The notes under the pieces: model-generated
Told to the model about the DNA's origin: nothing
The model's database searches: none
Seen by the model: only the letters and a program-made list of their open reading frames with translations
Assembly (NCBI RefSeq): GCF_013745115.1
Contig: NZ_CP051151.1
Coordinates: forward strand, 1,302,001 to 1,366,000
Length of the DNA stretch: 64,000 bases
Reading direction: 5' to 3'
Origin: Hujiaoplasma nucleasis
Lineage (GTDB): Bacteria > Bacillota_I > Bacilli_A > Izemoplasmatales > Hujiaoplasmataceae
Position numbers and translations under genes: made by a program
Part shown: piece by piece, positions 53,479-63,218 of the stretch
How positions within the stretch are numbered: position 1 is the stretch's first letter
Layout of the letters: each line of letters starts with the position of its first letter

Positions 53479-53507
53479 TTGACAACGCTTTCATATTTCA
53501 GTATAAT
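53479..53507 (+). promoter_or_regulatory. consensus promoter of the lysine fermentation operon
   Basis: TTGACA (53479-53484), exactly 17 bp, TATAAT (53502-53507). Transcription would start near 53513-53516, just ahead of the riboswitch. Confidence 0.9.
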
Positions 53508-53520
53508 GACTGTGTAATTT

Positions 53521-53716
53521 AAAGCACAGAGGCGCGTTTCATTGGTATTTTATACTGTTTTCTTTTTAGGCAAAGTTGTATAAAAGAAGGAATGAATCGC
53601 CGAAAGTATAGGGTCTACCTAAGGGTTCTTTACTTGGTATTTAAACAGACAGTTTAAATATTGCCATATTTATTATGGAGAGCTGTTATATTTTTTTAAA
53701 TATAACGGCTTTTTTT
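53521..53716 (+). promoter_or_regulatory. lysine riboswitch (L-box) with terminator, predicted ON switch
   Basis: Aptamer about 53525-53686: conserved AGAGG after P1 (53528-53532); P2 base GCG/CGC with TTTCATT/AATGAA; core ATCGCCGAAAG (53596-53606); P4 hairpin GGTATTTAAAC/GTTTAAATATTGCC; P5 CATA/TATG; and closing GGAGAGCTGT. This lines up element by element with the Bacillus lysC riboswitch. The P1 3' strand CTGT (53683-53686) is part of the 5' arm of a 13-bp terminator (53681-53693 with 53698-53710, TTTT loop, T-run), so P1 and terminator exclude each other. Lysine binding should block termination. The operon downstream degrades lysine. Confidence 0.92.
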
Positions 53717-53738
53717 ATTTTAAAAACGGAGGTTAAAT

Positions 53739-54170
53739 ATGAATCAATTGACAATCCAACAAATTAAAGTTGGAGATTTTGCGTCGACCAAAAAAGTATT
53801 TCTGGAAGAAGATGTTTTAAAATTTGCGGAGGTTTCGACTGATTACAACCCTGCACATGTGGATAAGGAGTATCCAAAACAGACCATGTTTAAAAAGCAA
53901 ATTGTTCATGGCATGTTGGTGGGCTCTTTGTTTTCTGCAATTTTTGGAGTTCAGTTGCCAGGTTTAGGTAGTATTTATACCAAACAATCTTTAAAGTTTA
54001 CTAGACCAGTATACTTCGGTGATGAAATCGAAGCTACTTGTAGTGTTAAAGAAATAATTGTGGATAGAAATAGAGTTATCTTTGATTGTGTAGCTAAAAA
54101 TCAAAATGGTGAAGTGGTTATTGTTGGCGAATCTGAAATTATGCCACCTAGGGAGACGAAAAATGCGTAG
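53739..54170 (+). CDS. MaoC-family (R)-specific enoyl-CoA hydratase
   Basis: 143-residue hotdog-fold hydratase with the catalytic pattern STDYNPAHVD (D35, N37, H40) and IVHGML (55-60), as in PhaJ. It may interconvert crotonyl-CoA and (R)-3-hydroxybutyryl-CoA, since crotonyl-CoA is the product of Kal in this pathway. It is the first gene after the riboswitch and is not part of the classical lysine-fermentation set. Good ACGGAGG site; overlaps atoD by 8 bases. Confidence 0.85.
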   Translation: MNQLTIQQIKVGDFASTKKVFLEEDVLKFAEVSTDYNPAHVDKEYPKQTMFKKQIVHGMLVGSLFSAIFGVQLPGLGSIYTKQSLKFTRPVYFGDEIEATCSVKEIIVDRNRVIFDCVAKNQNGEVVIVGESEIMPPRETKNA

Positions 54171-54816
54171 ATTTATAGATGGAGATTATTTTAAGTCTTT
54201 ATTAAAAGATGGAATGAGTATTCATGTTGGTGGGTTTTTAACCAATGGTTCACCTGAAGTATTAATTGATTTAGTGGTAGAGTCTAACGTTAAGGATTTA
54301 ACGATTATATGTAATGATGGAGGTTATGAAGGCAATGGTGTTGGTAAAATGATAGCCAATCATCAAGTCAAAAAATTAATAGCTTCTCATATAGGCACCA
54401 ATCCTGAGGTAGGCAAGCTAATGAATTTAAAAGAATTAGAAGTTGAATTGGTTCCTCAAGGCACTTTGGTCGAAAGAATCAGAGCATTCGGAGCTGGTTT
54501 AGGTGGTGTTTTAACACCTACTGGCCTCAATACGATTGTAGAAGAGGGTAAAGAGGTTATTGAGGTTCAGGGAAACAAATATTTATTGGAAGTAGCTTTG
54601 GGCGCTGACTTGGCTTTAATAGGTGGGGCAGTTTCTGATAATTATGGAAATTTAAAATATAAGGAGACCATGAGGAACTTTAACCCAATTATGGCGACGG
54701 CAGCTAATCTTGTTGTGGTAGAACCTTGTATGCAAGTTGAAGAAATAGATCCTGAAGATGTGGTAACACCGCATCCCTTTGTTGATTATATATTAGGTGG
54801 TGATTATCATGGATGA
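54163..54816 (+). CDS. atoD: butyrate-acetoacetate CoA-transferase subunit A
   Basis: Alpha subunit (217 aa) of the type I CoA-transferase that exchanges CoA between acetoacetate and butyryl-CoA, releasing butyrate. [18 protein letters not shown] near the N terminus is the CoA-binding stretch; [12 protein letters not shown] and [11 protein letters not shown] follow. ATG 54163 (after AGGGAGACG) replaces an in-frame upstream start that lies in the hydratase gene. Overlaps atoA by 8 bases. Confidence 0.92.
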
Positions 54817-55453
54817 TAAACAAATCATTGCTTCAAGAATTGCTTTAGAATTAAATGATGGTGATTTGGTGAATTTAGGAATAGGAATTCCTACTTTGGT
54901 TGCGAATTATGTTCCTGAAGATAAAAAAGTTATTTTTCAATCTGAAAATGGCATTATTGGTTTAGGTCCTGATAAAGGAGAAGATAATCAAATAGTAAAT
55001 GCTGGTGGAATGAAAGCTTCAATCAATAGGGGTGGAGCCTTTATTGACTCAGCGACTTCTTTTACCTTTATTAGAGGCGGTCATATTGATATGACGGTGT
55101 TAGGTGCTTTAGAAGTGGATCAAGAAGGTTCGATTGCTTCTTGGATTATACCTGGGAAATTAGTTCCTGGTATGGGTGGAGCTATGGATTTAGTTACTGG
55201 AGCGAAAAAAGTGATTATTGCCATGAGACATACCAATCGTGGTGAAGTTAAAATATTAAAGAAATGCCGTTTACCTTTAACTGCATATAAGCAAGCTAAT
55301 TTAATTGTGACTGAAATGGCTGTGATGAGAGTTGAAGAAGATGGTTTACACTTATTAGAAGTAAATCCTCAATATTCAATTGAAGATGTTGTGAAAGTTA
55401 CTGAAGCTGAATTGATTATTGGAGAAGTCTTAGCGATGAAAGGAATAGAATAA
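54809..55453 (+). CDS. atoA: butyrate-acetoacetate CoA-transferase subunit B
   Basis: Beta subunit (214 aa) with the catalytic glutamate E46 in [11 protein letters not shown], which forms the glutamyl-CoA thioester, and GLGIPTL-type ([14 protein letters not shown]) CoA-binding sequence before it. Start ATG 54809 behind AGGTGGTGAT; GTG 54797 is less suitable. Its product, acetoacetyl-CoA from Kce-derived acetoacetate, feeds back to acetyl-CoA. Confidence 0.93.
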
Positions 55454-55836
55454 TGAAAACTACTTTAAAATTAAGAATGTCGAGTCATGATGCTCATTAT
55501 GGGGGTAATTTAGTTGATGGCGCTAGAATATTAGCTTTATTTGGTGATGCTGCAACTGAATTATTGGTTAGAAATGATGGTGATGAAGGCTTATTTAGGG
55601 CTTATGAAAAAGTTGATTTTTTAGCACCTGTTTATGCTGGAGATTTTCTTGAAGTTGAAGCTGTAATTTTATCTCAAGGGAATACATCAAGAAAAATGGA
55701 ATTTAAATGTTATAAAATCATTAGTCCAAGAACAGATATATCAGAGTCTGCTTGTGATGTTTTAAAAGAGAGAATATTAACAACTTATGCCTTAGGAACC
55801 TGCATTGTGCCAAAGGAGAAACAAAGAAATGGATAA
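55453..55836 (+). CDS. kal: 3-aminobutyryl-CoA ammonia lyase
   Basis: 127-residue hotdog-fold enzyme that removes ammonia from L-3-aminobutyryl-CoA to give crotonyl-CoA. Sequence blocks [30 protein letters not shown] and [17 protein letters not shown] fit Kal. Position between atoA and kce matches the known cluster. Start codon overlaps the atoA stop (TAATG). Confidence 0.92.
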
Positions 55837-56647
55837 ATTAATTATTACATGCGCTATTTCGGGCGCTGAAGTTATGAAAGAGCATAACCCTGCAGTACCT
55901 TATAGTGTTGAAGAAATGGTTGAACAAGCTAGAGGTGCTTATGAAGCAGGGGCTTCAATCATTCATTTACATGCAAGATATGATGATGGAAGACCTACCC
56001 AAGATAAAGACAGATATGATGAGATTATCCAAGCCATAAAAAAAGCTTGTCCGGATTTAATTATTCAAGTTTCAACGGGTGGAGCTGTTGGAATGTCAAG
56101 ACAAGAAAGATCTTCTGTTTTAGATTTAAAACCAGAAATGGCAACCTTAGATTGTGGAACTTTAAATTTTGGTGGCGATGATATATTTGTTAATACTGAG
56201 AATGATATTATCTATTTTGCTAATAAAATGAATGAATATCATGTGATGTATGAAATGGAATGTTTTGAAAAAGGTCATATAGATATGACAAAAAGGTTAA
56301 TAAAAAAAGATATTATTAAAGCTCATTACCATTATTCGTTTGTGTTGGGTGTTAACGGTGGAATGACTGGTGAAGAAAGAGATTTTCATTTTCTAAGAGA
56401 ATCATTACCTGAAGGAGCCACATATTCAGTGGCTGGCATTGGAAGATATGAGTTTCCTTTGGCGGACTTATCGGTTAAATATGGTGGACATGTTAGAGTT
56501 GGTTTGGAAGATAATATATATTTAGAAAAAGGTGTTTTAGCTAAATCAAACGCTGATTTAGTTCGTAAGGTTGTTGAAATAGCAAAAAAATATAATAGAG
56601 AGATAGCTAGTCCTAGTGAGGCTAGACAAATACTTGGAATGGAGTAA
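55829..56647 (+). CDS. kce: 3-keto-5-aminohexanoate cleavage enzyme
   Basis: Zn-dependent BKACE-family enzyme: 3-keto-5-aminohexanoate + acetyl-CoA to acetoacetate + 3-aminobutyryl-CoA. 272 residues. [12 protein letters not shown] at the N terminus, metal ligands in IIHLHAR (H46, H48), [14 protein letters not shown], and a C-terminal VRVGLEDN carrying the third ligand Glu. ATG 55829 (AAAGGAG 11 bases before) is used rather than an upstream in-frame start inside kal. Confidence 0.94.
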
Positions 56648-56649
56648 TT

Positions 56650-57693
56650 ATGGATAAAATTTGTAAATACGGAACACATAGAGTTATATATCCTTTAGGT
56701 GTATTGCCGCAATCAGCGGATAAATTAAATAATAATATGATTTGTATGGATAATGAAATATTAATCGATGTTAAAACCTTAAATATAGATTCAGCTTCAT
56801 TTACACAAATCAAGAATGCTTGTGAAAATGACAAAGAAAAAATGGCTGAAATGATTTTAGATATTGTAAATACTAGAGGGAAAATGCAAAATCCAGTTAC
56901 TGGTAGTGGCGGAATGTTATTAGGAAGGGTAAAAGAAGTTGGTAAAGATATACAAAAAGACGTATCAGTTGGTGATGATATAGCTTCTTTAGTGTCTCTA
57001 TCATTAACCCCTTTAAAAATAAAAAAGATTCATGCCATTCATTTACATAAAGACCAAGTCGATATAGAAGGCCAAGCCATTCTTTTTGAAACAGGCATAT
57101 TTGCAAAAATACCTAGCGATATACCTCCGCATATTGCTTTAGCGGCTTTAGATGTTGCTGGTGCACCTGCCCAAGTTAAGAACTTGGTTAAAACAGATGA
57201 TACTGTAGTGATTTTAGGGGCTGCAGGAAAATCTGGTGTTTTATGTGCTTACCAAGCCAGAAAAAGCGCTGGACCTAATGGAAAAGTTATTGGTATCATT
57301 CATCATGATACCCATCAAAAAGAGTTAGAAGCATTGAATATTTGTGATCATATTGTTATTGGTGATGCAAAAAGACCTATGGAAATATATGATATCGTTA
57401 TGAACTTAACCAATAATGAAGGATCTGATGTAACGATTAATGTTGTTAATGTTCCGAACACAGAAATGGCAACTATATTACCAACCAAAGCTTCGGGAAC
57501 AGTATATTTCTTCTCTATGGCTACGTCATTTACTAAAGCGGCTTTAGGAGCTGAAGGTATTGCGGCTGAAGCCTTAATGATTATTGGTAATGGATACACT
57601 AAAAACCATGATCAAATTACTTTAGATATCTTAAGAGAATCTAAGGCAATGTATCAATTATTTGAGAAACGTTACGGAAAGGAAAATCAATGA
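56650..57693 (+). CDS. kdd: L-erythro-3,5-diaminohexanoate dehydrogenase
   Basis: NAD-dependent oxidative deamination of 3,5-diaminohexanoate to 3-keto-5-aminohexanoate. 347 residues. N-terminal [19 protein letters not shown], a Rossmann motif [15 protein letters not shown] with preceding VVILG strand, and conserved [12 protein letters not shown]. Two bases after kce; overlaps kamA by 4 bases (ATGA). Confidence 0.93.
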
Positions 57694-58946
57694 AAAAAAT
57701 TACAAACGATTCATACTTAGATAGAAAAGCCAAGTATTTTCCTAATGTAAGTGATAAAGATTGGAAGGATTGGCATTGGCAAGTTAGAAATAGAATTCAA
57801 TCCATAGAAGAGTTAGAAAAATATGTGACTTTAAACGAAGATGAAAAACTTCATATTCATGAAGTTTTAAAGAAATTTAGAATGGCAATCACCCCTTATT
57901 ATTTTGCTTTAGCAGATATTAATAATCCTGATTGCCCTATTAGAAAGCAAGCTATCCCTTCGTTAAATGAAGTACATGTCGGAAAAAATGATATGGTAGA
58001 TCCTTTAGCTGAAGATACAGATTCGCCTGTAGAAGGCTTAACACATCGCTACCCTGATCGCGTTTTGTTTTTAATTACAGATATGTGTTCTATGTATTGT
58101 AGACATTGCACTCGAAGAAGATTCGCTGGACAATCAGATCAAAGAATGCCTAAAGAAAGAATTGATAAAGCTATAGAGTATATTCGTCAAAATAAAGAAG
58201 TTCGCGACGTCTTATTATCAGGTGGAGATGCTTTGTTGGTAAGTGACTCTTTATTAGAAGATATTATTAAAAGATTAAGAGAAATCGACCATGTTGAGAT
58301 TATTCGCTTAGGGACTAGGACACCTGTAGTTCTTCCGCAAAGAATTACAGAGGATTTTGTAAATATGTTAAAGAAATACCATCCAATATGGTTGAATACA
58401 CATTTTAATCATTATGATGAAATCACTATTGAAAGCAAAGAAGCCATTGAACGTTTAGCCAATGCTGGTATACCTTTAGGAAATCAGTCAGTTTTATTGA
58501 AAGGTATTAATGATTCTGTAGATATTATGAAAACTTTAGTTCAACGTTTAGTAATGATGAGGGTCAGACCATATTATATCTACCAATGTGATTTATCTTT
58601 GGGTATTGAACATTTTAGAACTCCAGTATCTAAGGGTATTGAAATTATTGAAGGTTTAAGAGGTCATACATCAGGATTCGCTGTGCCTACTTTTGTTGTG
58701 GATGCACCAGGTGGTGGTGGAAAAATTCCTGTCATGCCTAATTATGTGATTTCTCAAGGGCCAGGCAAGATTGTATTAAGAAATTATGAAGGTGTGATTT
58801 CAACTTATTCTGAACCAACAAGTGAATATATAAATCGTGATGCATATAAGTCTGTAGAAGGTGTTTCATCTTTACTTGCTGGCAAACAAATATCATTAGA
58901 ACCAAAAGAATTGAAAAGGAAGAAAAGAACATTAAAAGAATCATAG
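57690..58946 (+). CDS. kamA: L-lysine 2,3-aminomutase
   Basis: Radical SAM, PLP enzyme converting L-lysine to L-beta-lysine, the first step. 418 residues. Fe-S cysteines C133-x3-C137-x2-C140 (CSMYCRHC), RRRFAG after them, GGDALL, and the PLP lysine K345 in [10 protein letters not shown]. The C-terminal tail is basic ([13 protein letters not shown]) and its coding end contains the RBS of the next gene. Confidence 0.97.
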
Positions 58947-59932
58947 AATTACTTGGGGATTTTCAAGTAATTAGTATTGTGGGAAATGCTAAAAATGCGG
59001 GTAAAACAACGGTTTTAAATTCTATTGTTTCACATAGCCAAAAACCTTTAATTATTACTTCTATTGGTTTAGATGGAGAGGCAATAGATCAGGTTACATT
59101 TTTAGAAAAACCACAAATAGATGTAAGAATAAATGATATTGTTGTTAGTGCTAAAGACACTTTAAAAGCTTTTGAAGCTTCTTATGAAATTATTGAAGAA
59201 ACACAGATGTTTACAGCCGTTGGACCCATAGTAATATGCAAAATTACAAAGCCAGGAAAAGTATTGGTTGCTGGTCCTTCATTGGTTGATGATATGCAGG
59301 TTTTGGTTGATAGATTAATGGATCAATATGACCATAGAATCTTAATTGATGGTGCTTTTTTTAGGCAAAGTTTTGCAAAAGTATCTGATGCAAGTATTTT
59401 TGTGGTAGGCGCAAATGATTCAGTAGATATGGAACTAACCATAGACCATGCATATTATGCCTATAAAAAATTAGTTTTATCAAAAATTAAAAAAGAATAT
59501 CACGTCTTTAATCATGTTGAAAATATAGCTGTTTTAGAACACAATCACATAAAAGTATTAAATTATGATTCAATCTTAGGTAATGTTGATCGCTTATTTA
59601 ATGAAATTAACGACAATACAAAAGCTGTATATTTTCCTAAAACATTAACTGATGAATTTGTCTCTAAATGGACATCTACCTATCATAAACTTAATTTTGA
59701 TATTGTTGTAAAATCTGGTGTTCATATACAATTGAATCAAACGAATTTAAAAAATATTTTTAAAATGGATCACGATATATTTGTAATTAATCCTATAGAA
59801 GTATGTGGTGTATGTATCAATCCGTATTCACCAAGAGGATATACATATGATCCTATTGAATTTAAAAAAGTTCTATCAAAAAAATTAAAACGTGATGTGA
59901 TTAACGTAAAAGAGGATGATGCAAGTGAATAA
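58931..59932 (+). CDS. kamB: lysine 5,6-aminomutase reactivase-like P-loop protein (KamB-type)
   Basis: P-loop protein in the kamB position between kamA and kamD; KamB/KamC are thought to reactivate the B12 aminomutase. Walker A is [10 protein letters not shown]. From the first ordinary start (GTG 58979) the P-loop would lie at residue 2 with no beta strand before it and no RBS near. The frame stays open upstream, and ATT 58931 has AGGAAG eight bases before it, giving [27 protein letters not shown]-like order (strand then loop), 333 aa. I therefore take ATT as the start. A C-terminal [10 protein letters not shown] motif may bind metal. No kamC (MutS-like) gene is present. Confidence 0.75.
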
Positions 59933-61481
59933 GTTAAAATTAAATCAAAATATTATTGATTCTAGTAGAAAGTATGCTGGCCTAATCGCGAAGGATGTCC
60001 AATCTTATATAGATTTACATTCTACTGTATCCGTTGAAAGAACAGTATTAAGATTGTTGGGTGTTGATGGGGTTGATTTATATGACGTTCCATTAATGAA
60101 TAGAATGGTAGATGAAGTAAAAGAGAATGCTGATATATCAAAGGGAATATCTGTTTATATTGCTTCTGCTTTAAAAAGTACTAACATGACTTTAAATGAT
60201 TTTTGCCAGGCATATTTAGATAATTCTGTTTCTTTAGTTGGACATAATTTATTAAGTAAAGATGAAACCCATCAAGTCTTAAAGCCCTATTATGAAAATA
60301 CATTAAATAGAATTAAGAAAAACCGACAACTTAGAGAAGAATTAATCAACAATTACGGGGAAGAAAAGACCTTATTGTATGTTATTGTTGCGACAGGAAA
60401 TATTGATGAAGATGTTGTTCAAGCTCAAGCAGCTGCTAGAGCTGGAGCTGATATCGTTGCGGTTATTCGTTCAACCGGTCAATCATTACTTGATTATGTG
60501 CCTTATGGAAAAACCACTGAAGGTTTTGGTGGAACTTATGCAACTCAAGAGAATTTTAGAATTATGAGAAAGGCTCTTGATGAGGTCGGCCAAGAAGAAA
60601 ATAGGTATATTCGTTTGGTAAATTATGCATCTGGATTATGTATGCCTGAAATTGCGGCTATGGGTGCTTTAGAACGATTAGATGTTTTATTGAATGATTC
60701 TATGTATGGCATTATTTTTAGGGATATTAATATGAAAAGAACCTTTGTTGACCAATATTTCTCGAGAATGATTAATGCATATTCAGGAATTATCATCAAT
60801 ACAGGTGAGGATAATTATTTAACGACCAGTGATGCAGTTGAAGAAGCTCATACAGTTACAGCTTCTCAATTTATTAATGAAGCTTTTGCTATAGAGGCTC
60901 ATTTACCTGAGAAGTTGATGGGTTTAGGACATGCATTTGAAATTAATCCACAAGTGGAAAATTCTTTTTTACTCGAGATTGCTCACGCTGAATTAGCTAG
61001 AGAATTATTTCCAAAAGCGCCTTTAAAATATATGCCACCTACCAAGCATATCAATGGTAATATTTTTAGGGCTTACCAACAAAATGCTATGTTTAACATG
61101 GTGACTACATTAACAGAACAAAAAATACATTTATTAGGTATGATGACAGAAGCTATACATACGCCTTTTATTTCAGATAGATATTTGGCAATTAAGAATG
61201 CTCAAATGGTTCAAGAATCTATGAAATCATTGGCTGATGAAATTGTATATAAAGAAGATGGGATGATTCAAAAAAGAGCCCATGAGGTTTTAGATAAAGC
61301 CAATAAGTTATTAAAAGAAATTTCTGAAGAAGGCATGTTTAATTCCTTGGCCAAGGGCGTTTTTGCCCAAACAAAAAGAACGGAAAAGGGTGGAAAAGGA
61401 TTAGATGGTGTCTTTAAAAAATCTAATGATTACATCAATGTAATACAAGATCAATTGGAGGTGTTTTTCAATGAAAATTAA
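59925..61481 (+). CDS. kamD: lysine 5,6-aminomutase alpha subunit
   Basis: Large subunit of the adenosylcobalamin/PLP enzyme that moves the terminal amino group of beta-lysine to give 3,5-diaminohexanoate. 518 residues, the family size. TIM-barrel blocks include VDGVDLYDVPLMNRMVD, IVAVIRSTGQSLLDYVP, EGFGGTYATQENFRIMR and PPTKHINGNIF. Start GTG 59925 with GAGG nine bases before it; ATG 59916 lies directly against that site. Overlaps kamB by 8 bases and kamE by 11. Confidence 0.95.
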   Translation: MNKLKLNQNIIDSSRKYAGLIAKDVQSYIDLHSTVSVERTVLRLLGVDGVDLYDVPLMNRMVDEVKENADISKGISVYIASALKSTNMTLNDFCQAYLDNSVSLVGHNLLSKDETHQVLKPYYENTLNRIKKNRQLREELINNYGEEKTLLYVIVATGNIDEDVVQAQAAARAGADIVAVIRSTGQSLLDYVPYGKTTEGFGGTYATQENFRIMRKALDEVGQEENRYIRLVNYASGLCMPEIAAMGALERLDVLLNDSMYGIIFRDINMKRTFVDQYFSRMINAYSGIIINTGEDNYLTTSDAVEEAHTVTASQFINEAFAIEAHLPEKLMGLGHAFEINPQVENSFLLEIAHAELARELFPKAPLKYMPPTKHINGNIFRAYQQNAMFNMVTTLTEQKIHLLGMMTEAIHTPFISDRYLAIKNAQMVQESMKSLADEIVYKEDGMIQKRAHEVLDKANKLLKEISEEGMFNSLAKGVFAQTKRTEKGGKGLDGVFKKSNDYINVIQDQLEVFFNEN

Positions 61482-62199
61482 ACCTTATGGAGATACATTG
61501 AATGATGGTTCAATTCAAATGAGTTTCACACTTCCTATGTCCTTATCTGCCAAGGCTGTTCAAACTGCCAAGGAGATTGGTAAGCAAATGAATTTGGTTG
61601 ATCCTTCTGTGGTACATGCTGAAAGTGTTGGTGATAATTTTTCCTTTTTTATCGTCTACGGTCAAACAAAAGCAATTGTTGATATAGATAAAATAAAGGT
61701 TGTAGAAATCCAAAAAACTGAGCATTCAAAGTCGGATATAGAGAAACTAATAAAAGATAATTTTGATGAAGAAATAGTTATTATCGGAGCTTCTACTGGA
61801 ACAGATGCCCATACCGTTGGAATAGATGCTATAATGAATATGAAAGGTTTTGATGGTCATTATGGTTTGGAAAGATATGCTGGGATAAGGGCTATCAATT
61901 TAGGTTCGCAAGTGACCAATGAAGATTTTGTTAAAATCGCTCGACAAGAAAAAGCAAAAGTTTTATTGGTGTCACAAACGGTGACTCAAAAAGACGTGCA
62001 TTTAAAGAATTTAATTGAACTTGTTGAACTCTTAGAATCTGAAGGTATGAGAAAAGATGTTTTACTAATCGCTGGAGGTGCAAGAATTACTCATGAACTT
62101 GCAAAAGAATTAGGTTATGATGCGGGTTTTGGACCGGGTTCTTATGCGGAAGATGTCGCAAGTTTTGCAGTAACTGAACTTATCAAAAGGAGAGGGTAA
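61471..62199 (+). CDS. kamE: lysine 5,6-aminomutase beta subunit
   Basis: Cobalamin-binding subunit. 242 residues: N-terminal domain, then a B12 Rossmann domain with the base-off ligand motif DAHTVG (112-117, His114) and the GGGARI/GPGS region near the C terminus. Lys125 in IMNMKGFDGHYG is at about the position of the PLP-binding lysine in characterised KamE. GGAGGTG site before the ATG. Confidence 0.95.
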   Translation: MKIKPYGDTLNDGSIQMSFTLPMSLSAKAVQTAKEIGKQMNLVDPSVVHAESVGDNFSFFIVYGQTKAIVDIDKIKVVEIQKTEHSKSDIEKLIKDNFDEEIVIIGASTGTDAHTVGIDAIMNMKGFDGHYGLERYAGIRAINLGSQVTNEDFVKIARQEKAKVLLVSQTVTQKDVHLKNLIELVELLESEGMRKDVLLIAGGARITHELAKELGYDAGFGPGSYAEDVASFAVTELIKRRG

Positions 62200-62200
62200 A

Positions 62201-62734
62201 ATGGCTGTCACTAGATTAGAACAAATTTCTACAAAAAAAGGTGATTCTGGAAAATCAAAGAATTATAATGATGATGCTTTTAGTAAAGACGACCCTTTGT
62301 TTGAAACTTTAGGTACCATTGATGAACTAAGTTCGTTTTTAGGTTTAACTTATCATGAGGCTAAATTACCTATTATTAAAACTGTTCAAGAAAACCTACA
62401 AACCATTAATTCAATGATTGCGACCAATCCAAGATCTGATTTATATCAAAGAATTAAATATATCACTGATATGGATATTGAATTCATTGAGGACCATATC
62501 CAAGCAACATTAAATTCTTACCCATCAAATGATACTTTTTACTTACCTGGAACTGAAAAAACGAAAGTAGGAGCTTATTTTGATGTCTGTAGGACCATTG
62601 CTAGAAGAGCGGAAAGAAGATTAATTACTTTTGTGAAAAGTCACCGAAGAAAAGATTTGTCATATGCTCAAAAATATATTAATAGATTAAGCGATTTATT
62701 ATTTGTCTTGAGTTTAAAAGATAGTGAATTTTAG
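62201..62734 (+). CDS. cob(I)alamin adenosyltransferase, PduO type
   Basis: Transfers the adenosyl group of ATP to cob(I)alamin, making the AdoCbl cofactor. 177 residues. N-terminal TKKGDSGKS (TKxGDxG nucleotide motif), ETLGTIDELSSFLGL and the C-terminal RTIARRAERR and YINRLSDLLFVLS. One base after kamE, last gene of the lysine operon; it can also supply the glutamate mutase encoded next. The tie to AdoCbl enzymes on both sides supports the assignment. Confidence 0.93.
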   Translation: MAVTRLEQISTKKGDSGKSKNYNDDAFSKDDPLFETLGTIDELSSFLGLTYHEAKLPIIKTVQENLQTINSMIATNPRSDLYQRIKYITDMDIEFIEDHIQATLNSYPSNDTFYLPGTEKTKVGAYFDVCRTIARRAERRLITFVKSHRRKDLSYAQKYINRLSDLLFVLSLKDSEF

Positions 62735-62764
62735 TAATTTTATCTTTAAATCTCATATGTTATA

Positions 62765-62773
62765 TGATATAAT
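62765..62773 (+). promoter_or_regulatory. extended -10 promoter of the glutamate mutase cluster
   Basis: TGATATAAT (TATAAT 62768-62773), 40 bases before the glmS TTG, with no strong -35. No terminator is visible after the adenosyltransferase, so read-through from the lysine operon is also possible. Confidence 0.55.
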
Positions 62774-62813
62774 GTTTTACGTTATAAAAACGCTTACATA
62801 AGAGGAGATAATT

Positions 62814-63218
62814 TTGAAAACAATCGTAATAGGCGTCATTGGCGCCGATGTACATGCTGTGGGAAACAAAATCATTGAATATACCCTTGTTAACTCAGGG
62901 TATAATGTTGTAAACATTGGGGTGCTTTCATCTCAAGAGGATTTTATTAATGCTGCTATTGAAACTGATGCTGACTTAATTATGGTTTCTTCTTTATACG
63001 GCCATGGTGAGATTGACTGTAGGGGAATGAGAGAAAAATGTATTGAGTCTGGAATCGAAGACATATTATTATATGTTGGCGGTAATATTGTTGTTGGTAA
63101 ACAAGACTTTGATGAAGTAAAAGAAAGATTTAATGAAATGGGATTTAATAGGGTATATCCTCCAGGTACATCTATTGATGAAGCCTTAGAGGACATTAAA
63201 GAAGATTTGGGAGAGTAA
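62814..63218 (+). CDS. glmS: glutamate mutase sigma subunit (methylaspartate mutase S)
   Basis: 134-residue B12-binding subunit of glutamate mutase, which converts L-glutamate to 3-methylaspartate. [15 protein letters not shown] holds the D12-x-H14-x-x-G17 cobalamin motif; [14 protein letters not shown] and YVGGNIVVG are typical. The start codon is TTG behind AGAGGAGAT. Not to be confused with glucosamine-6-phosphate synthase GlmS. Confidence 0.95.

What the first reader, a model, noticed from the sequence alone, without database searches (positions are those of the whole stretch)
53479..53739. Predicted lysine-activated (ON) riboswitch controlling lysine catabolism
The aptamer matches the lysine riboswitch core. 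Its P1 3' strand (CTGT 53683-53686) is also the 5' arm of the only terminator, and upstream ATTTAAA (53517-53523) can pair with TTTAAAT (53695-53701) in the terminator loop/3' arm. Lysine-stabilised P1 should therefore prevent termination. Known lysine riboswitches on biosynthesis and transport genes work as OFF switches; this layout suits a degradative operon.
Basis: partly seen in the sequence, partly recalled or inferred. Interest (0 to 1): 0.75.

Follow-up and report, generated by a model that had tools for sequence, protein, structure and literature searches.

The report
Lysine-activated riboswitch on lysine-fermentation operon
A wall-less deep-sea bacterium carries an RNA sensor that most likely turns on its lysine-eating genes when lysine is plentiful, the reverse of the usual lysine switch; this logic had been predicted before for such genes, so it is a well-supported new example and not a new kind of switch.

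Summary
Window 53519-53693 is a full-length RF00168 lysine riboswitch (74.2 bits, gathering score 30) directly upstream of a complete lysine-fermentation operon in Hujiaoplasma nucleasis zrk29. The only terminator before the first gene uses the aptamer's P1 3' strand (CUGU 53683-53686) inside its 5' arm, so closed P1 and full terminator exclude each other: lysine-ON by termination control. Comparison supports this strongly. In relatives, 58 of 58 scorable lysine riboswitches on lysine-fermentation genes have this overlap, against 1 of 79 on transport or biosynthesis genes, and P1 5' strand, P1 3' strand and terminator partner co-vary as triplets. The same genome has a second lysine riboswitch, on an ABC transporter gene, with the ordinary OFF layout. 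One detail fails: the extra ATTTAAA/TTTAAAT helix is energetically unhelpful and not conserved. The 'known ones are OFF' contrast is also incomplete: ON lysine riboswitches, and positive control of kal/kce, are already stated in the literature. New here: a perfect CcpA-type cre site over the promoter, widespread in related genomes, suggesting a two-input gate (lysine present, preferred sugar absent). Nothing was tested at the bench; direction of response remains inferred.

The parts
53479..53507 (+). sigma-70-type promoter TTGACA-17-TATAAT
   Evidence: 12 of 12 consensus matches
53480..53493 (-). CcpA-type operator (cre), reverse strand TGAAAGCGTTGTCA, overlapping the -35 box and spacer
   Evidence: exact match to TGWAANCGNTNWCA, the only exact match in 64 kb; exact in 41 of 59 fermentation loci of relatives, one mismatch in 5 more, against 0.4 expected with <=1 mismatch in shuffles
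53519..53693 (+). lysine riboswitch aptamer (RF00168)
   Evidence: 74.2 bits, E 1.6e-17, complete model; junction core conserved
53526..53529 (+). P1 5' strand ACAG
53566..53570 (+). P2-loop side (UUAGG) of a possible P2-P3 kissing interaction with 53618-53622 (CCUAA)
   Evidence: read directly from the sequence; complementarity only, not tested statistically
53618..53622 (+). P3-loop side (CCUAA) of the possible kissing interaction
   Evidence: read directly from the sequence
53683..53686 (+). P1 3' strand CUGU, shared with the terminator 5' arm: the switching element
53681..53716 (+). intrinsic terminator: 13 pairs 53681-53693/53698-53710, U tract 53710-53716
53728..53732 (+). Shine-Dalgarno GGAGG of the first gene, outside the terminator
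   Evidence: read from the sequence
53739..54170 (+). MaoC-like hydratase, first gene of the operon
   Evidence: PF01575
54166..55453 (+). CoA-transferase subunits A and B (54166-54816, 54812-55453)
   Evidence: TIGR02429, TIGR02428
55453..55836 (+). kal, 3-aminobutyryl-CoA ammonia lyase
   Evidence: NF052388 over cut-off
55829..56647 (+). kce, 3-keto-5-aminohexanoate cleavage enzyme
   Evidence: NF052387 over cut-off
56650..57693 (+). kdd, 3,5-diaminohexanoate dehydrogenase
   Evidence: NF052381 over cut-off
57690..58946 (+). kamA, lysine 2,3-aminomutase
   Evidence: TIGR03820 over cut-off
58979..62199 (+). kamB reactivase and lysine 5,6-aminomutase alpha and beta (58979-59932, 59916-61481, 61471-62199)
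   Evidence: NF052386, NF052384, NF052385 over cut-offs

Best explanation
It is a lysine riboswitch of ON type that works by controlled transcription termination. Shown by sequence and comparison: a lysine aptamer with intact junction core, whose P1 3' strand is also the G+C-bearing base of the 5' arm of the only terminator. Inferred: without lysine the short four-pair P1 does not hold, the terminator forms as its 3' arm emerges, and RNA polymerase stops before the MaoC gene. With lysine the aptamer folds, P1 is locked, what remains of the terminator is a weak A-U hairpin set back from the U tract, and polymerase reads into the lysine-fermentation operon. A cre site over the promoter probably adds CcpA-type repression when a preferred sugar is present, so the operon would be expressed when lysine is abundant and better carbon is not.
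For: RF00168 match and operon identity. 58 of 58 scorable fermentation-linked lysine riboswitches have terminator/P1 overlap, 78 of 79 others do not. Triplet covariation of P1 5' base, P1 3' base and terminator partner: A-U-A 42 and G-C-G 7 at one pair; C-G-C 37, C-G-U 9 and U-A-U 9 at the next. Occupying the P1 3' strand drops the mean hairpin energy from -16.0 to -1.6 kcal/mol over 58 loci. In the window P1 is part of the minimum-energy fold for transcripts ending from 53690 to 53705, and the terminator wins by 53708. The same genome's transporter riboswitch has a separate terminator whose 5' arm pairs with the P1 3' strand, the ordinary OFF layout. 24 genomes carry both layouts.
Against: No ligand binding, termination or expression data. 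At equilibrium the full-length RNA favours the terminator by 8.6 kcal/mol, more than lysine binding is likely to repay, so ON switching must be decided during transcription. The ON aptamers may descend from a single origin (one clade not rejected), so 58 loci are not 58 independent events.
Confidence: 0.88

Rival explanations
1. Ordinary OFF switch: lysine-bound aptamer promotes termination, as in lysC leaders.
For: Most characterised lysine riboswitches are OFF; the aptamer family is the same.
Against: An OFF layout needs a terminator separate from P1 plus an antiterminator that uses the P1 3' strand. Here there is no second terminator before the start codon and the terminator itself uses the P1 3' strand. 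None of 58 fermentation loci has the separate layout, 78 of 79 others do, and the antiterminator signal seen in those (own -5.97, swapped -4.31 kcal/mol, 0 of 200 swaps) has no counterpart here. It would also shut off lysine breakdown when lysine is plentiful.
Confidence: 0.05
2. Extended-P1 antiterminator: ATTTAAA 53517-53523 must pair with TTTAAAT 53695-53701 to block the terminator.
For: The seven bases are complementary and the leader/terminator duplex is locally favourable, -7.1 kcal/mol.
Against: Not conserved over 58 loci. The two outermost aligned P1 positions pair in only 24 and 15 of 57 sequences. Forcing it raises the energy from -44.1 to -39.9. P1 alone already removes the terminator base.
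Confidence: 0.12
3. The aptamer variant senses another compound, such as beta-lysine or a later pathway intermediate, and not lysine itself.
For: Fermentation-linked aptamers differ consistently from the others in P2: the loop-E base A, 100% in others, is 8% here and 0% in clostridial kal aptamers, and the AGUA motif is found in 7/61 versus 80/86.
Against: The junction bases, where lysine binds in known structures (own knowledge), are unchanged: AGAGG, GC, GCCGAA 97-100% in both sets. The differences lie mostly in peripheral P2 and P4.
Confidence: 0.05
4. Regulation is mainly by the cre site, and the riboswitch is a vestige.
For: Exact cre over the promoter in most related loci; HPr kinase encoded in the genome.
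Against: P1/terminator complementarity is maintained through compensatory changes; a vestige would decay. None of the three LacI-type proteins reaches the CcpA cut-off.
Confidence: 0.03

Closest known systems
Lysine riboswitch (L box, LYS element), RF00168
   Same: Complete aptamer, same junction core, control of transcription by an intrinsic terminator
   Different: Opposite gene-control logic from the characterised lysC-type switches; four-pair P1 shared directly with the terminator; variant P2 without the loop-E AGUA motif
Predicted lysine riboswitches on catabolic genes (kal, kce) of Clostridium sticklandii, Fusobacterium nucleatum and Thermoanaerobacter (PMC5584792; ON logic for certain lysine riboswitches also in PMC2258182)
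   Same: Same aptamer family, same pathway genes, same inferred positive response
   Different: Here Mollicutes (Izemoplasmatales), operon starting with MaoC and CoA-transferase genes, explicit platform anatomy with triplet covariation, and a cre site
ON riboswitches for adenine and glycine (pbuE and gcvT types)
   Same: Ligand-stabilised structure buries part of the terminator stem (mechanism stated in PMC2258182)
   Different: Different aptamers and ligands; resemblance is of mechanism only
Engineered lysine-ON riboswitch of Corynebacterium glutamicum (Zhou and Zeng 2015, cited in PMC5584792)
   Same: Lysine switches expression on
   Different: Artificial, obtained by engineering

Membership tests
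Lysine riboswitch RF00168 | Covariance-model score at or above the gathering cut-off over the whole model | tested here: met
   74.2 bits against 30, model 1-182
Lysine riboswitch RF00168 | Conserved junction core (AGAGG, GC, GCCGAA, UGG and the 3' G..GCU) | tested here: met
   all present in the window; near-invariant in both ON and OFF sets, though the last G of UGG is A in 41% of ON relatives
Lysine riboswitch RF00168 | P2 loop-E (sarcin-ricin-like) motif: common in the family, not required for membership | tested here: not met
   two-base deletion in the Rfam alignment; AGUA in 7/61 fermentation versus 80/86 other aptamers
Lysine riboswitch RF00168 | Specific lysine binding | not testable with these tools
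   needs in-line probing or calorimetry
ON-type transcriptional riboswitch | Terminator stem uses the aptamer's P1 3' strand | tested here: met
ON-type transcriptional riboswitch | Ligand increases read-through | not testable with these tools
   needs single-round transcription with lysine
OFF-type lysine riboswitch (lysC-like) | Separate terminator plus antiterminator formed by the P1 3' strand | tested here: not met
   no separate terminator in the leader; present in the same genome's transporter riboswitch
cre/CcpA-controlled promoter | cre consensus TGWAANCGNTNWCA at the promoter | tested here: met
   exact at 53480-53493 on the reverse strand
cre/CcpA-controlled promoter | CcpA and HPr kinase in the genome | tested here: inconclusive
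   HPr kinase over its cut-off; three LacI-type matches to the CcpA model, none over the cut-off

The most novel reading that the evidence does not exclude
Lysine-fermentation operons are governed by a separate, old lineage of lysine aptamers, with altered P2, fixed to ON logic and in Izemoplasmatales coupled to a cre site, so that one leader region reads two inputs (lysine and sugar status).
Probability: 0.45. Interest if true: 0.5.

Novelty: new member of a known kind. Interest (0 to 1): 0.4.

Why it matters
The genome holds two lysine riboswitches of one family with opposite wiring, one on uptake and one on breakdown, which makes a clean test of how the same aptamer is rewired from OFF to ON. 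The literature I could search holds predictions of natural lysine-ON switches but, as far as I found, no direct test; H. nucleasis zrk29 is a cultured strain and the leader is short enough for in vitro work. The cre site suggests how free-living wall-less bacteria rank lysine below sugars as an energy source.

Tried and rejected
First-pass geometry test let long composite hairpins count: it gave 55/58 against 15/89. Of the 15, three (L108, L190, L191) turned out to be fermentation loci by their downstream MaoC gene and the other 12 were mostly composites of antiterminator plus terminator; the compact-hairpin test replaced it and left one (L156). The extended P1 helix was rejected. A 5' hairpin CUGUG 53510-53514 with CACAG 53525-53529 was considered as an apo-state element, but the promoter places the transcript start near 53514, so most of it would not be transcribed; not resolved without mapping. 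A viral-contig scan for kal relatives found none. Rodionov 2003 (PMC290268) and Serganov and Patel 2009 (PMC3744886) are not held, so their content is known only through papers that cite them. Counting loci as independent was rejected: one origin of the ON aptamers is not excluded.

Full report
What is there. The window lies in a 1,808,583-base single-contig genome, the exact size published for Hujiaoplasma nucleasis zrk29 (PMC10470597, CP051151), a free-living wall-less bacterium of Candidatus Izemoplasmatales. Rfam finds one RNA family match in the window, a complete lysine riboswitch at 53519-53693. It sits between a 12-of-12 promoter at 53479-53507 and an operon whose products match MaoC hydratase, CoA-transferase A and B, Kal, Kce, Kdd, KamA, KamB and lysine 5,6-aminomutase alpha and beta, most above curated cut-offs. 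These are the enzymes of anaerobic lysine fermentation (pathway from established knowledge).

Anatomy of the switch. P1 has four Watson-Crick pairs (53526-53529 with 53683-53686). The terminator runs 53681-53710 with 13 pairs and a U tract. Its G+C-bearing base is made of the P1 3' strand, so the two cannot both form in full. With P1 held, the best fold keeps only a seven-pair A-U hairpin set back from the U tract; energy -44.1 against -52.7 kcal/mol for the terminator state. In growing transcripts from 53514, P1 is present in the minimum-energy fold at ends 53690 to 53705 and lost by 53708. So lysine has a short window during transcription to fix the outcome. These energies ignore tertiary structure and ligand.

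Comparison. 200 relatives were searched for the riboswitch and for Kce, and loci were fetched and rescanned. In most relatives with Kce a lysine riboswitch lies 0.4 to 4.1 kb upstream. I classified each leader by whether a compact terminator overlaps the P1 3' strand. Fermentation loci: 58 overlapping, 0 separate, 3 without a call. All other lysine riboswitches (ABC binding protein, lysA, lysC, NhaC, YfcC, OppA): 1 overlapping, 78 separate. 24 genomes have both kinds. This window's own genome is one: the second copy at 675 kb precedes an ABC substrate-binding protein and has a separate terminator with an antiterminator pairing GCGCU/AGCGU. The set of separate leaders shows a clear antiterminator signal against swapped partners (0 of 200), a positive control for the method.

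Covariation. In 57 distinct fermentation leaders the P1 3' bases pair both with the P1 5' strand and with the terminator 3' arm in 54 and 55 cases at the two outer conserved pairs, with A-U-A replaced by G-C-G, and C-G-C by U-A-U. In a separate alignment, position 53527/53685 is C/G in 50 and U/A in 11 of 61 ON sequences, while the others have U/A in over 90%. This is the strongest evidence that the shared strand is under selection for both states.

How far it extends. Among 80 loci with named organisms, 26 of the 60 searched carry the riboswitch near kal, including Clostridium, Oscillospiraceae, Lachnospiraceae, Christensenella and one Anaerolineaceae (Chloroflexota). Twelve give the overlapping layout by the automatic test. 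By eye, eight more do: L207, L211, L213, L216, L217, L230, L234, L268, some with poor U tracts. Several Clostridium leaders have a long hairpin with the P1 3' strand followed by a second, separate terminator (L215, L244, L247, L248; L214 less clearly), whose logic I did not resolve. The aptamers of fermentation loci, clostridial ones included, lack the conserved A of the P2 loop-E motif. One clade for the ON set is not rejected, so a single old origin is possible, and the 58-to-1 count must not be read as independent events.

The extra ATTTAAA/TTTAAAT helix is not conserved and not needed. The ON logic is not new in principle: Barrick and Breaker 2007 name certain lysine riboswitches with ON logic, citing Rodionov 2003, and Mukherjee 2017 states that catabolic kal/kce genes are positively regulated. 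I found no experimental proof of a natural lysine-ON switch in the papers I could search, but that library is partial. Missed: an exact cre operator at 53480-53493, the only exact match in the window. Exact matches occur in 41 of 59 fermentation loci against about 0.4 expected with up to one mismatch, and in the five Acholeplasmataceae loci of the named set; clostridial loci lack it. HPr kinase is encoded; CcpA identity is open.

Verdict. Observation confirmed; ON mechanism strongly supported by comparison, not by experiment; a new member of a known kind, with an unusually clear comparative case and a probable second input.

Noticed in passing
window 53480-53493 and upstream of kal/kce operons in relatives: Exact CcpA-type cre site over the promoter, conserved in Izemoplasmatales and Acholeplasmataceae fermentation loci. 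In one group (L034, L036, L038, L040) a near-cre instead lies just downstream of the -10 box, suggesting independent placement.
   Followed up: partly
L105 (own genome 674705-677674) riboswitch: Second lysine riboswitch of the same genome, OFF layout, on an ABC amino-acid binding protein gene.
   Followed up: yes
aptamer position equivalent to 53544: Fermentation-linked lysine aptamers lack the P2 loop-E A/AGUA motif that is nearly invariant in other lysine aptamers of the same class; the junction core is unchanged.
   Followed up: partly
L215, L244, L247, L248 (and L214) downstream of the aptamer: Clostridium-type kal leaders with a long hairpin containing the P1 3' strand followed by a second terminator; could be a double-inversion ON switch or another logic.
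   Followed up: partly
L156 (G090): An NhaC-type transporter leader is the only non-fermentation lysine riboswitch scored with the ON layout.
   Followed up: no
L043 5214-5383 (-), L057 729-898 (+): Two Kce loci lacking a lysine riboswitch upstream have a cobalamin riboswitch about 5 kb upstream of kce; lysine 5,6-aminomutase needs B12.
   Followed up: no
L230 198-368: Lysine riboswitch directly upstream of kal in an Anaerolineaceae (Chloroflexota) genome bin, with an overlapping hairpin.
   Followed up: partly
window 62201-63218: Cobalamin adenosyltransferase and a B12-binding-domain protein follow the aminomutase genes, probably serving the B12-dependent mutase.
   Followed up: partly
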